Origin: Gammaproteobacteria bacterium
GTDB lineage: Bacteria > Pseudomonadota > Gammaproteobacteria > GCA-001735895
Length of the DNA stretch: 64,000 bases
Assembly (NCBI GenBank): GCA_029862125.1
Contig: JAOTXY010000001.1
Span: forward strand, 1-64,000
Reading direction: 5' to 3'
The first letter of the stretch is position 1. Each line of letters opens with the position of its first letter. Both the position numbers and the translations under genes were made by a program. Under the pieces are notes generated by a model that was not told where the DNA came from, searched no databases, and saw only the letters and a list, made by a program, of their open reading frames with translations. Of the stretch, positions 26,403 through 45,974 are shown one piece after another.

Positions 26403-26447
26403 AACGATGCCACTTATTAGTATCTATTGACCAAAGAGAATACCGAA

Positions 26448-29027
26448 ATGCTACAGGCATACCGCGAACACGTTGATGAACGCGCCAAACTGGGGATCCC
26501 TCCCGAGCCGCTGGATGCGCAGCAAACCGCCGCACTGGTAGAATTGATCAAGAATCCTCCCGCCGGCGAAGAAAATTACCTGCTCGAATTGCTGACTCAG
26601 CATGTACCGGCCGGCGTCGATGAAGCGGCTTATGTCAAGGCAGGATTTCTCGCGGCGATTACCCGCGGTGAGGCATCGACCTCGTTAATCGATAAGGTCA
26701 GGGCGGTCGAAATTCTCGGTACCATGCTTGGCGGCTATAACATCGAACCGTTGATAACCTGTCTCGACGATGACGAGACCGCGCCCGCTGCGGTCAAGGC
26801 GTTGGCGCATACTCTGCTGGTGTTCGATGCCTTCCATGATGTTGTTGACAAATCCGAGGCGGGAAATGCCTATGCCAAACAGGTGCTCGAATCCTGGGCC
26901 AACGCCGAATGGTTTACCTCGAGACCTGGGCTCGCCGACAAGATCACCGTCTCGGTGTTCAAGGTTCCCGGCGAAACCAACACCGACGATTTGTCCCCGG
27001 CGCAGGACGCCTGGTCGCGGCCCGATATTCCGTTGCATGCCAACGCCATGCTGAAAAATCCGCGTGAAGGTCTGACCGACAAGCCGCTCGAAAAAATTGC
27101 CGAGCTCAAAGCCCTGGGTCATCCGATCGCCTATGTCGGCGATGTCGTCGGTACTGGCTCGTCGCGTAAATCGGCAACCAACTCGGTGCTATGGCACATG
27201 GGTGATGACATTCCGTTCATCCCGAACAAGCGCAATGGCGGTTATTGCTTCGGTAGCAAGATCGCGCCGATTTTCTTCAACACCATGGAAGATGCCGGTG
27301 CGTTACCGATCGAAATGGATGTCAGCCTGATGGAAATGGGCGATGTTATCGATATCTATCCGTTCGCGGGCAAGGTCACGCGTCACGACAGCGACGAAGT
27401 AGTTGCAGAGTTTGAGCTCAGTACCAACGTGCTCCAGGATGAAGTGCAGGCCGGTGGCCGAATTCCGCTGATTATCGGACGCGGTTTGACCGAGCGTGCG
27501 CGCAAGGCGCTGGGTCTTGGCGAAACCGATTTGTTTGAAAAACCGCAGGTTCCCGAAGACAGTGGCAAGGGCTACACGCTGGCGCAGAAGATGGTTGGCA
27601 AGGCCTGTGGCTTGCCCGGGGTACGCGCGGGCATGTACTGCGAACCGAAGATGACCACGGTCGGCTCGCAGGACACCACCGGGCCGATGACGCGCGATGA
27701 ATTAAAAGATCTGGCCTGCCTCGGCTTCTCCGCCGACCTGGTGATGCAGTCTTTCTGCCATACCGCGCCCTACCCAAAGCCGGTGGACGTGGTAACCCAT
27801 CACACCCTGCCTGACTTCATGCAAAATCGTGGCGGTATTTCGTTGCGCCCGGGTGATGGCGTTATCCATTCGTGGATGAACCGTATGCTGCTGCCCGATA
27901 CCGTCGGTACCGGCGGCGACTCGCATACCCGTTTTCCGATCGGCATTTCGTTTCCGGCGGGTTCCGGACTGGTTGCCTTTGCGGCTGCAACCGGCGTGAT
28001 GCCACTCGACATGCCGGAATCGGTGCTGGTACGCTTTAAAGGCGAGATGCAACCGGGTATCACCTTGCGTGACCTGGTCAACGCGATTCCTTATGCCGCG
28101 ATTCAGCGTGGCTTGTTGACGGTCGAGAAAAAAGGCAAGAAGAATGTCTTTTCAGGTCGTGTACTGGAGATCGAAGGCCTGCCGCAGCTCAAGGTCGAAC
28201 AGGCCTTCGAATTGTCCGACGCCTCGGCCGAACGTTCCGCCTCGGGTTGCACTGTCAAGCTCGACAAGGAACCGATCATCGAGTACATGAATTCCAACAT
28301 TACGATGTTCAAATGGATGGTCAACGAGGGCTACGGCGACGTGCGTACGATTACGCGGCGCATCGAAGAAATGGAAGCATGGCTCGCCAATCCAGAATTA
28401 CTGGAAGCTGATGCCGATGCCGAGTATGCCGAGATTATCGAAATCGATCTCGCCGAAATCACCGAACCGCTACTGGCCTGCCCCAACGACCCGGATGACA
28501 TCAAGCCGTTGGCGGATGTCGCAGGCAGAAAAATCGACGAAGTCTTCATCGGTTCCTGCATGACCAACATCGGCCATTTTCGCGCCGCCGGCAAGCTGCT
28601 CGATAAACTCACCGATCCCGTTGTCACCCGCCTGTGGATTGCACCACCAACCAAGATGGACGAAGCGCAGTTAACCGCCGAGGGTTACTACAATATTTTT
28701 GGTCGCTCGGGCGCGCGTACCGAAATGCCAGGCTGTTCGCTGTGCATGGGTAACCAGGCCAGGGTTGCGGAAAATTCGACCGTGGTTTCGACCTCGACGC
28801 GTAATTTCCCGAATCGTCTCGGTAAAGACGCCGATGTTTTCCTGGCTTCCGCGGAGCTTGCCGCAGTTTCCTCGATCCTCGGCAAGATCCCGACCATGGA
28901 CGAGTACATGCAGTATGCCAACGATATCAATACCATGGCCGAGGATGTCTACCGTTACCTCAACTTCAACGAAATGGAAAACTACACCGCAGCGGCCAAC
29001 ACCGCCTTCCCGGTCAAAGTCGCCTAA
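26448..29027 (+). CDS. acnB: Bifunctional aconitate hydratase 2 / 2-methylisocitrate dehydratase AcnB
   Basis: An 859-residue AcnB-type aconitase: N-terminal HEAT-like domain (1-160, beginning [19 protein letters not shown]), swivel domain (about 170-375), then the iron-sulfur domains with [26 protein letters not shown], and the 4Fe-4S cysteines in IGSCMTN and [14 protein letters not shown] at 26427 is open upstream, but the ATG at 26448 aligns with the family N-terminus. With prpD it completes the methylcitrate cycle since no prpF/acnD pair is present. Confidence 0.95.
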
Positions 29028-29067
29028 TCATTTATACCAGCTTTAGGCCGACACTTACTGCATCCAA

Positions 29068-29262
29068 GGCAGCCGTTGAAACCCCTTGTGACTGACCGGG
29101 TGGCCTGCGGCTTCCTGAAAAAGCTTTGTTTTTCAAGGGCAAGGCGAGACTCGGCGTCCCTGCCTCGACTCGCCACAGGCCGCATCCCTGCGGCCTGACC
29201 CTCAAAAAACAAAGCTTTTTCAGCCCCCGGTCTTTACGTCACAAGGGGTTTCAACGGCTGCC
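29068..29262. repeat. 195-bp nested palindrome with perfect 25-bp outer arms
   Basis: Outer arms at 29068-29092 and 29238-29262 are perfect 25-bp inverted repeats. Inner arms at 29115-29133 and 29205-29223 (core AAAAAGCTTTGTTTTT) are perfect over 19 bp. A third hairpin near the centre pairs AGGCCGCA with TGCGGCCT (about 29177-29196). The whole can fold into a long branched structure. It has no ORF and no recognisable transposase, so it could be a miniature inverted-repeat element or a dispersed intergenic unit. Confidence 0.75.
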
Positions 29263-29335
29263 TCTATAGCATTCGTTTAATTGGAAATGTGAGGCCTCGA
29301 TATCGAGGTCCAGAATTACTTGAAGGTGTGGGCGC

Positions 29336-29424
29336 TGGGCTTTGTTTGCAGGACGCTGCGCAACAGGGATGTTGCGCGCGAGCCTACATGGATGTATTCA
29401 CGGCGTTCCTGCAAACAAAGCCCA
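29336..29424. repeat. 89-bp palindrome with nested GCGCAACA hairpin
   Basis: Perfect 18-bp arms lie at 29336-29353 and 29407-29424 (TGGGCTTTGTTTGCAGGA and its complement). Inside is a second perfect hairpin, GCGCAACA-GGGA-TGTTGCGC (29358-29377). The interior also contains ACATGGATGTATTCACGG, a phrase I recognise from intergenic repeats in other gammaproteobacterial genomes, although that is from memory only. Confidence 0.7.
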
Positions 29425-29461
29425 ATGACCACGCCGTTCGCAGGAATGTCGAGAATTGTTT

Positions 29462-30892
29462 TTACCAGGGCAGGGAGAAGGTTTTGACGTTGGTGTAGGA
29501 GTTCATCGCTTCGATGACGCCTTCCTTGTAGCCAAGACCGGAATCCTTGATGCCACCGAACGGTGACATTTCGATACGGTAGCCAGGCACTTCCCAGATA
29601 TTGACGGTACCGGTTTCGAGCTCATTGATGAAACGGATAATGTCGTCCATGCGATTGGTGCAGACCCCTGACGATAATCCGAATGCAGTCGAGTTGGCGA
29701 CTTCGATGGCGTGGTCGATATCGCGCACGCGGATGATCGGAATCGGCGGGCCGAAGGTTTCTTCGCGCACCAGCTCGCAGTCAAAGGGCACGTGATCGAG
29801 CACGGTCGGTGAATAAACCGCGCCCTTGCGGTCATTGCCGTAAAGTAGCGTGGCGCCTTTTTCGATTGCGTCGTTGACGCGGTTCTGGAACAGGATTGCG
29901 GCGTCCTCGTTGATTACGGTACCGACATCGGTCTCCGGATCCATCGGGTCGCCGTATTTCAATTTCGCCGCTTTCTCCGCCACCAGCGCGGCGAATTCGT
30001 CGGCGACCGAATCGATGCACAACACGCGTTTGACTGCGGTGCAGCGCTGCCCGGAATTCTTGGTGCCACCGGCGACGGCGAGTTCTGCTGCCTTGTCGAG
30101 ATCGGCATCGTCCATGACGATCAGCGGTGCATTGCCGCCCAGCTCGAGTATGGTGCGGCGGTAACCGGCGGTCTCTGCAATGTATTTGCCGACCGGTACA
30201 CTGCCGGTGAATGAAATCAGGTCGATATTCTTATTGGTCAGCATCTCGTCGCCCATGTCTTCGGGCAAACCGGTGACGATCGATAGCATTTCCGGCGGCA
30301 ACCCGGCCTCGTAACAAATGTCCGCCAGCACCAGTGCGGTCAGAGGGGTTTGCTCGGTCGGTTTACCGACCATGCAGTTATTGGTCGCGATCGACGGTGC
30401 GATCTTGTGCGAAATCATGTTGAGCGGGTGGTTGAACGGCGTGATTGCCGAAATCGCACCCAGCAATGGATCGCGCTGGGTAAAAATCTTGCGCTGCTTG
30501 CCATGCGGCGTCAGGTCGCAGGAAAATACCTGGCTGTCATCGTTGATACACAGCTGCCCCGCCAGGCTGTACACGTCGAAGGCGCGTCCGGCTTCGTAGA
30601 GACTGTCTTTTTTACTAAGGCCGCATTCGGCGGTAATCAAATCGGAAAGCTCATGCTTACGTTCGACGATGATTTCGGCGATCCGCATCAGGATCTGCTG
30701 TCGCTCGTAACGGGTCAATTTGGGCCTGTAATTAGCGGCGATTTCGAAAGCACCGGCAATCTGTGCGCGACTGGCGCGCGGCACGGTGCCGACGACTTCG
30801 CCATTGTAGGGATTGAGAACCTCGATATTTTTACCGGTGTCGCCATCGACCAGTTCACCGGCGATGCGCATTTTTTCGTGTCTGACAGTCAT
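29462..30892 (-). CDS. phnY: Phosphonoacetaldehyde dehydrogenase PhnY
   Basis: A 476-residue NAD-dependent aldehyde dehydrogenase. Catalytic Cys lies in [12 protein letters not shown] (about residue 291), the general-base Glu in [11 protein letters not shown], with the ITPFNHPLN cofactor segment and [10 protein letters not shown] near the C-terminus. Its position 27 bp after phnA and opposite phnW identifies it as the enzyme converting phosphonoacetaldehyde to phosphonoacetate rather than a generic lactaldehyde or succinate-semialdehyde dehydrogenase. It is the second gene of the phnA-phnY minus-strand unit. Confidence 0.9.
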
Positions 30893-40059: not shown

Positions 40060-40133
40060 TAGTCATCCCCGCGAAAGCGGGGATCTTACAATGAGCCATA
40101 TTTACAAGATCCCCGCTTTCGCGGGGATGACTA
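40060..40133. repeat. IPAFAGMT-type palindrome, perfect 28-bp arms
   Basis: Arms at 40060-40087 and 40106-40133 are perfectly complementary over 28 bp around an 18-bp centre. Each arm is itself a hairpin: ATCCCCGC-GAAA-GCGGGGAT with a GNRA tetraloop. Translated, the element gives the familiar IPAFAGMT string of dispersed proteobacterial repeats. A truncated third copy (AAAGCGGGAATGACG) follows at 40136-40150. It lies between the transporter permease and the GlpD-like gene and could terminate or attenuate transcription. Confidence 0.8.
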
Positions 40134-45807: not shown

Positions 45808-45865
45808 TCCCGCGGCTCCCAAAGTAGTCCGATACACCCCCCTGCTCGTCCCACAATTCCCTGCT

Positions 45866-45946
45866 GTCATCCCGCGGCTCGACCGCGGGATCCAGTCAAA
45901 TGTGGGCGATTGCAACCTGGATACCGCGGTCGAGCCGCGGTATGAC
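45866..45946. repeat. GTCATCCCGCGG-type paired hairpin repeat
   Basis: Two 30-bp arms, 45866-45895 and 45917-45946, are inverted copies with two differences. Each arm is also its own hairpin around CCGCGG, and the differences are compensatory: the left hairpin has C-G where the right one has A-T (ATCCCGCGG...CCGCGGGAT against ATACCGCGG...CCGCGGTAT). This implies selection for the small hairpins. It lies just after the MetE-like gene and is related to the element at 40060. Confidence 0.75.
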
Positions 45947-45974
45947 ACTGAGAGGGACCAGGATCCCGATACTC

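What the first reader, a model, noticed from the sequence alone, without database searches (positions are those of the whole stretch)
29068..29262. Nested 195-bp palindrome between acnB and phnY
Perfect 25-bp and 19-bp arms with a third hairpin inside are far more than a terminator requires. The structure resembles a miniature inverted-repeat element or a structured RNA. If dispersed, it could be a mobile unit of this lineage.
Basis: seen in the sequence. Interest (0 to 1): 0.5.

Follow-up and report, generated by a model that had tools for sequence, protein, structure and literature searches.

The report
Dispersed hairpin RNAs with CsrA-like loops
The palindrome is one copy of a repeated RNA-forming element that sits at gene ends in this group of bacteria, and its two tips look like docking sites for the regulator protein CsrA; if that is right, the copies together form a scattered RNA control layer.

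Summary
The palindrome is real (29067-29263; minus-strand fold z = -14) and not single-copy: 14 copies lie in this genome, and 17 of 31 genomes of the genus carry it. It does not look like a decaying transposon: copies sit at matching places in different species, show no target-site duplication, and change both arms together (97% of 4691 base-pair cells paired over 58 copies). Wobble mismatches point to the folded strand: on the minus strand G-U outnumbers A-C 77 to 25, so the working molecule is probably an RNA antisense to acnB. Its two tips are hexaloops A-N-G-G-A-N, the CsrA/RsmA type of binding loop; 55 of 58 copies form both. Two further families, one at 29325-29435 next door, have the same loops and the same wobble bias on their GGA strand. 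In the own genome 50 of 57 listed elements stand in 25 back-to-back pairs, mostly between convergent genes. One family occurs in 51 of 271 sampled genera of the class. The Rfam motif TwoAYGGAY (function unknown, proposed to bind CsrA) matches sibling copies but not the window copy. Most likely: dispersed CsrA-type RNA elements, acting as local 3'-end control or a distributed sponge. CsrA binding, promoter and expression are untested.

The parts
29067..29263 (-). element A: nested palindrome; the minus strand is taken as the folded RNA
   Evidence: 14 copies in own genome; 58 distinct full copies aligned; wobble asymmetry favours the minus strand
29067..29092 (.). outer arm, left: conserved outer end, variable middle, conserved inner end
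29238..29263 (.). outer arm, right, complementary to 29067-29092
29233..29237 (-). conserved one-sided bulge (GUAAA on the minus strand) between outer and middle stems; an NUAAA segment in the same place is kept in 13 of 14 short or odd variants looked at
29102..29115 (-). conserved bulged mini-hairpin segment (minus strand GGAAGCCGCAGGCC)
29115..29132 (.). inner arm, left (perfect 18 nt)
29206..29223 (.). inner arm, right (perfect 18 nt)
29184..29189 (-). hexaloop AGGGAU, CsrA-type ANGGAN, on an 8-bp hairpin
   Evidence: A-GGA of this loop intact in 56 of 58 copies
29156..29161 (-). hexaloop AGGGAC, CsrA-type ANGGAN, on a short hairpin
   Evidence: A-GGA of this loop intact in 58 of 58 copies
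29325..29435 (+). element B2: second family, partner of A in opposite orientation
   Evidence: model R2 119.6 bits (this copy is one of the five the model was built from)
29365..29370 (+). hexaloop AGGGAU of B2
29388..29393 (+). hexaloop AUGGAU of B2
26427..29027 (+). acnB, ends 39 bp before element A
29462..30892 (-). aldehyde dehydrogenase (phnY-like), convergent, ends 26 bp after B2

Best explanation
The palindrome is DNA for a structured RNA read from the minus strand, one member of a dispersed and vertically kept set of elements (families A, B1 and B2 here). Each is a long stem whose sequence is largely free but whose pairing is kept, ending in two hairpins with the hexaloop ANGGAN, the recognition loop of CsrA/RsmA. 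Inferred mechanism: when the region is transcribed, the two loops hold a CsrA dimer on a very stable stem. This either marks the 3' region of the transcript for CsrA control or, summed over many copies, titrates CsrA. Shown here: dispersal, structure conservation, strand asymmetry, loop conservation, back-to-back pairing mostly at convergent gene ends. Inferred: transcription, CsrA binding, the regulatory outcome.
For: Copies: 14 in own genome, 17 of 31 genomes of the genus. Structure: 97.0% of 4691 pair cells standard, 56 of 81 pairs with two-sided change, covariation 0.360 against 0.112 shuffled; B1 99.0%, 0.427 against 0.129; B2 95.6%, 0.784 against 0.196 (which includes 7 wrong-strand rows). 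In-place co-change of both arms at orthologous loci. Strand: GU:AC on the GGA strand is 77:25 for A (31 copies with more GU, 8 with more AC), 98:13 for B2 (46 and 1), 45:6 for B2 in other genera only (20 and 1), 31:2 for B1 (20 and 1). For A the collecting model was built on the other strand, so its bias works against this result. Loops: A,G,G,A intact in 58 of 58 (loop 1) and 56 of 58 (loop 2) while loop positions 2 and 6 vary. Elements that form at least two ANGGAN hexaloop hairpins with a stem of 3 bp or more: 55 of 58 A, 62 of 68 B2 (28 of 33 in other genera), 30 of 35 B1; on the opposite strand none forms two (0 of 58, 68, 35). In the window, pairs of hairpins with an A-N-x-y-z-N hexaloop occur 2 times for GGA (these two elements), mean 0.125 over the 64 words. 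CsrA is encoded in the genome. Rfam TwoAYGGAY matches 36 places over its cut-off in 12 of 31 genomes, all on the GGA strand of an A copy when compared row by row, and a published motif screen matched TwoAYGGAY to the CsrA site (passages read, PMC4333381).
Against: No expression or binding data. No sigma-70-like promoter found between 28950 and 29550, and no terminator-like site at the element. GGA strands run antisense to the adjacent gene, and in the 11 of 25 own-genome pairs that are only 10-13 bp apart no promoter fits between, so how the GGA strand is transcribed is unexplained. Of 14 short or odd A variants folded, from G015, G017, G022, G023 and G045, none shows a pair of ANGGAN hairpins (one is only partly readable), though 13 keep the bulge, so the basal part may have a function of its own. 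Single GGA hexaloop hairpins are not enriched in the window (8, mean over words 10.3), nor is AYANGGAYG (11 against 8.4 expected). The window copy itself does not match TwoAYGGAY even at E 10. 14 of 31 genomes of the genus lack A at E 0.01. For B1 and B2 the search model favours GU on the strand searched and favours the loops it was built from. Many cells are shared by descent, so the sign counts are not independent.
Confidence: 0.58

Rival explanations
1. A structured RNA element as described, but read by a protein other than CsrA (or mainly through the basal bulge module); the GGA loops resemble CsrA sites by coincidence or are bound secondarily.
For: The basal part (bulge, long stem) survives in 13 of 14 short or odd variants, none of which shows a pair of GGA hairpins; CsrA binding is not tested.
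Against: The loops keep A-N-G-G-A-N with free second and sixth positions in A and recur in B1 and B2, also in B2 of other genera whose hairpin stems differ.
Confidence: 0.22
2. A 3'-end protector or terminator: the plus-strand hairpin ends or protects the acnB mRNA, and the palindrome serves both convergent genes.
For: By a longest-open-frame rule A lies 8-101 bp after a sense frame's stop in 13 of 14 own copies, and the unit lies between convergent frames in 13 of 14; very stable hairpin.
Against: No terminator-like site at the element; the mismatch pattern shows that pairing on the mRNA strand is the less protected one; neither role needs two conserved hexaloops or a conserved bulge.
Confidence: 0.1
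3. A miniature mobile element (MITE or REP type) without host function.
For: Dispersed, intergenic, palindromic; inverted pairs recall BIMEs; one Y1 transposase gene in the genome.
Against: No target-site duplication; no near-identical copies among the 14 (at most 88% to the window copy; alignment); orthologous positions; no ANGGAN hairpin with a stem of 4 bp or more in the 3,333-base locus of the only Y1 transposase found; no match to 29067-29435 in the plasmid and phage collections or to the core pattern in viral contigs. Other transposase families were not searched, and no empty site was compared.
Confidence: 0.06
4. Palindromes kept perfect by template switching during replication, without selection.
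For: At some loci several neighbouring arm positions differ together between species with hardly any intermediate mismatches.
Against: Would be symmetric between strands, but GU and AC differ 3- to 15-fold; would not spare the loops and the one-sided bulge.
Confidence: 0.04

Closest known systems
TwoAYGGAY RNA (Rfam RF01731, clan CL00106)
   Same: Two adjacent hairpins with conserved GGA loops on a basal stem; sibling copies score over the family cut-off (36 places; 61 bits for L002), on the GGA strand.
   Different: Window copy not matched; loops are ANGGAN, not strictly AYGGAY; here 14 copies in one genome, with a long variable basal stem, conserved bulge and mini-hairpin, and back-to-back pairing with other families.
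CsrB/CsrC and RsmX/Y/Z sponge RNAs
   Same: Hairpins with GGA in the loop; proposed action on CsrA.
   Different: Those are a few dedicated sRNAs with many sites, own promoter and terminator (recalled); here two sites per element, many loci, no promoter or terminator seen.
REP/BIME elements with RAYT transposases
   Same: Intergenic, palindromic, multi-copy, inverted pairs.
   Different: Much larger (REP size recalled), ANGGAN loops, in-place co-variation, no transposase link found.
Ysr224 (Rfam RF02770)
   Same: Weak match (32.1 bits, cut-off 70) to the minus strand around B2, which may mean a B2-like repeat in Yersinia on the non-GGA strand.
   Different: Below the cut-off; not pursued.

Membership tests
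TwoAYGGAY RNA (RF01731) | score over the gathering cut-off of the covariance model | tested here: not met
   window copy: no match at gathering or at E up to 10; met by 36 places in 12 of 31 genomes, 5 of them in own genome
TwoAYGGAY RNA (RF01731) | two terminal loops AYGGAY | tested here: not met
   window loops AGGGAU and AGGGAC; many siblings have AUGGAY
CsrA/RsmA binding RNA | GGA in a hairpin hexaloop ANGGAN (consensus recalled) | tested here: met
   loop 1 in 58 of 58, loop 2 in 56 of 58 copies; both as hairpins in 55 of 58
CsrA/RsmA binding RNA | binding of CsrA | not testable with these tools
   only the presence of CsrA genes was tested
CsrB/RsmZ-type sponge sRNA | own promoter and intrinsic terminator | tested here: inconclusive
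   consensus scan of 28950-29550 finds no promoter and no terminator at the element; other promoter types are not covered
MITE | target-site duplication | tested here: not met
   9 of 58 with a direct repeat of 4 or more, 9.19 expected from re-dealt flanks
MITE | terminal inverted repeats alike between copies | tested here: not met
   outermost 8 bases mostly alike, middle of the arms variable
REP/RAYT | RAYT gene flanked by the repeats | tested here: not met
   one Y1_Tnp gene found; no ANGGAN hairpin (stem of 4 bp or more) in its 3,333-base locus
intrinsic terminator | stem followed by a T-run | tested here: not met

The most novel reading that the evidence does not exclude
Gammaproteobacteria carry a scattered CsrA-binding RNA system: many two-site hairpin elements placed back to back at the ends of convergent genes, transcribed antisense to those ends, that together act as a distributed CsrA sponge and couple the 3' ends of gene pairs to CsrA activity.
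Probability: 0.3. Interest if true: 0.82.

Novelty: new variant of a known kind. Interest (0 to 1): 0.62.

Why it matters
CsrA sponges are known as a few dedicated small RNAs. If tens of dispersed elements per genome carry paired CsrA-type loops, the supply of CsrA sites in these bacteria is spread over the chromosome and tied to gene ends, and a Rfam motif of unknown function gains a context, a strand and a testable partner. The wobble asymmetry is also a simple way to assign the folded strand of a palindromic repeat.

Tried and rejected
Integron attC site: considered because of the fixed orientation after stop codons and the free but paired arms; the outer box GGCAACC does not fit the attC consensus as I recall it (no call). 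Intrinsic terminator: no terminator-like site at the element. MITE: no target-site duplication. REP/RAYT: no link. Phage or plasmid origin: no match. Literature: in the listings (titles and starts of abstracts) I saw no paper on dispersed CsrA-type repeats; that library lacks most subscription papers and holds no bioRxiv preprints. Passages of PMC4333381, PMC2864571, PMC11701678 and PMC9788540 were read; the last describes two CsrA-related sRNAs of Alcanivorax, not dispersed repeats. Loop-loop pairing between A and its B partner was considered (the loops are complementary in the plus transcript) but not tested.

Full report
Observation. The palindrome is there and slightly larger than stated: outer arms 29067-29092 and 29238-29263 are perfectly complementary over 26 nt, inner arms 29115-29145 and 29193-29223 pair at 87% with 18 perfect pairs, and two small hairpins lie inside. 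Both strands fold far better than shuffles (z -13.8 for 29060-29270 plus, -14.3 for 29067-29263 minus). It lies between acnB and a convergent aldehyde dehydrogenase gene. A second nested hairpin, 29325-29435, lies between it and that gene.

Dispersal. A search of the window's own genome (3.7 Mb, 188 contigs) finds 14 copies with E below 1e-24, the other 13 being 71-88% identical to the window copy over the matched part. A covariance model of these 14 (R1) finds the element in 17 of 31 genomes of the genus, the own one included, at E 0.01. In the class it is rare: 7 of 369 sampled genomes at E 1e-5, own included; of the other six, five match in part only and one weakly over the full length. Named records with the core are uncultured gammaproteobacterial MAGs (21 stretches). 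There was no match in viral contigs for the core pattern or in plasmid and phage records for 29067-29435.

Anatomy and evolution. Aligned copies share fixed blocks (outer end GGCAACCG, the block around GCGACTGACCGGGTGGCCTGCGGCTTCC, GAAAAAG, the two inner hairpins) separated by stretches that differ from copy to copy but are complementary within each copy. Over 58 distinct full copies 97.0% of 4691 cells are standard pairs and 56 of 81 pairs show changes on both sides; covariation 0.360 against 0.112 in shuffles and at most 0.067 when the partner is slid. Clustering by the sequence upstream gives 16 groups of copies, short variants included, at matching places in different genomes. At one place both arms change together, for example L006 against L119, L008 against L133, L002 against L138. 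Flanking direct repeats are no more common than chance (9 of 58 against 9.19). This is not how a decaying transposon behaves. Optional 15-base inserts with the core GGTCCGACGCATCGG recur at several positions.

Which strand. A G-U pair on one strand is an A-C mismatch on the other. On the minus (GGA) strand of A the counts are GU 77, AC 25, other 53; 31 copies have more GU, 8 more AC. The collecting model was built on the plus strand, so its bias works against this. The related families give 98:13 for B2, 45:6 for B2 in other genera only, and 31:2 for B1, each on its own GGA strand; there the model bias is in favour. I read this as selection on an RNA of the GGA strand. From general knowledge, transcription- or replication-linked C-to-T bias on the coding strand would give the opposite sign for A. 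Cells shared by descent are not independent.

The loops. On the minus strand both apical loops read A-N-G-G-A-N, nearly always closed by C-G. Loop 1 keeps A, G, G, A in 58 of 58 copies and loop 2 in 56 of 58, while the second and sixth loop positions and several stem pairs vary. Counted as hairpins with a stem of at least 3 bp, 55 of 58 copies of A have two or more, and none on the opposite strand. This is the hexaloop recognised by CsrA/RsmA (consensus recalled; that such motifs generally come in pairs because CsrA is a dimer is stated in PMC4333381, passages read). In the window, pairs of hairpins with an A-N-x-y-z-N hexaloop on one strand occur twice for GGA, both being these two elements, and 0.125 times on average over the 64 words; single GGA hexaloop hairpins are not enriched (8, mean 10.3), nor is the word AYANGGAYG (11 against 8.4). 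The genome encodes CsrA (PF02599: 4 matches over the cut-off, two of them adjoining pieces of one locus).

Other families and arrangement. Models R2 (B2) and R3 (B1) find B2 in 19 of 31 and B1 in 14 of 31 genomes of the genus. For the own genome 17 B2 and 26 B1 places are listed (counted by hand, opposite-strand and cross-family rows and one weak row left out; the lists are cut short). B2 occurs in 58 of 369 genomes and 51 of 271 genera of the class sample, own included. At least two ANGGAN hairpins are formed by 62 of 68 B2 elements (28 of 33 in other genera) and 30 of 35 B1 elements. Of these 57 own-genome elements (14 A, 17 B2, 26 B1), 50 stand in 25 pairs with GGA strands pointing outwards, 10 to 133 bp apart (rows; spacings); two A copies and five B1 have no partner found by the models. 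In other species inverted A-A pairs stand up to about 260 bp apart. By a longest-open-frame rule the unit has convergent frames on both sides in 13 of 14 A units and 9 of 13 B-B pairs. Read by eye, L004 seems to have rplU downstream in the other direction, against the rule's call. In other genera the frame facing the GGA 3' end is convergent in 25 of 33 B2 elements, but the upstream frame is as often antisense as sense, so a convergent pair is not the rule there.

Known relatives. Rfam finds nothing in the window at the gathering score, and at E 10 no TwoAYGGAY at the element, but TwoAYGGAY (RF01731) matches sibling copies: 36 places over the cut-off in 12 of 31 genomes, 5 of them in the own genome. 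Comparing rows, all 36 lie on the GGA strand of an A copy. Weinberg and others list TwoAYGGAY as probably an RNA, not a riboswitch (table row read, PMC2864571). The motif screen of PMC4333381 proposes it as a CsrA-binding RNA (passages read). I therefore do not file the window copy as a TwoAYGGAY member, but it works like one by anatomy, and several of its siblings are members by score.

Against. Of 14 short or odd variants of A folded, none shows a pair of GGA hairpins (one is only partly readable), though 13 keep the one-sided bulge, so the basal module has its own constraint. No promoter was found and no terminator at the element. The GGA strand is antisense to the adjacent gene, 11 of 25 pairs are only 10-13 bp apart, and its transcription is unexplained. 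Nothing here measures RNA or binding.

Verdict. A dispersed, structure-conserved RNA element with paired CsrA-type loops; new variant of a known kind. CsrA binding is the best-supported but untested step.

Noticed in passing
window 40060-40133: A second, unrelated palindromic repeat (TCATCCCCGCGAAAGCGGGGATC type) with 62 matches in the own genome at E 0.001, counting both strands. Another strong palindrome lies at 45865-45947.
   Followed up: partly
L005, L008, L009, L010, L013, L014 (inside the elements): A 15-base micro-insert GGTCCGACGCATCGG (or relatives and its complement CCGATGYGTCGGACC) sits at different positions of A, B1 and B2 and could form a small hairpin of its own.
   Followed up: no
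L113, L114 (G015 C42, G017 C336): Variants that keep the basal stem and the AUAAA bulge, with a quite different long apical part.
   Followed up: partly
L116:707-872 (G023 C154): A hybrid element: the left half looks like one A copy and the right half like an inverted partner, as if the region between an inverted pair had been lost; it lies between the same gene pair that carries element pairs in sister species.
   Followed up: partly
G000:C52:55289-55442: A CsrA paralogue appears in two adjoining pieces, possibly a frameshift or an assembly error.
   Followed up: no
window 29352-29462, minus strand: Weak match (32.1 bits, cut-off 70) of the non-GGA strand around B2 to Yersinia sRNA Ysr224.
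   Followed up: no
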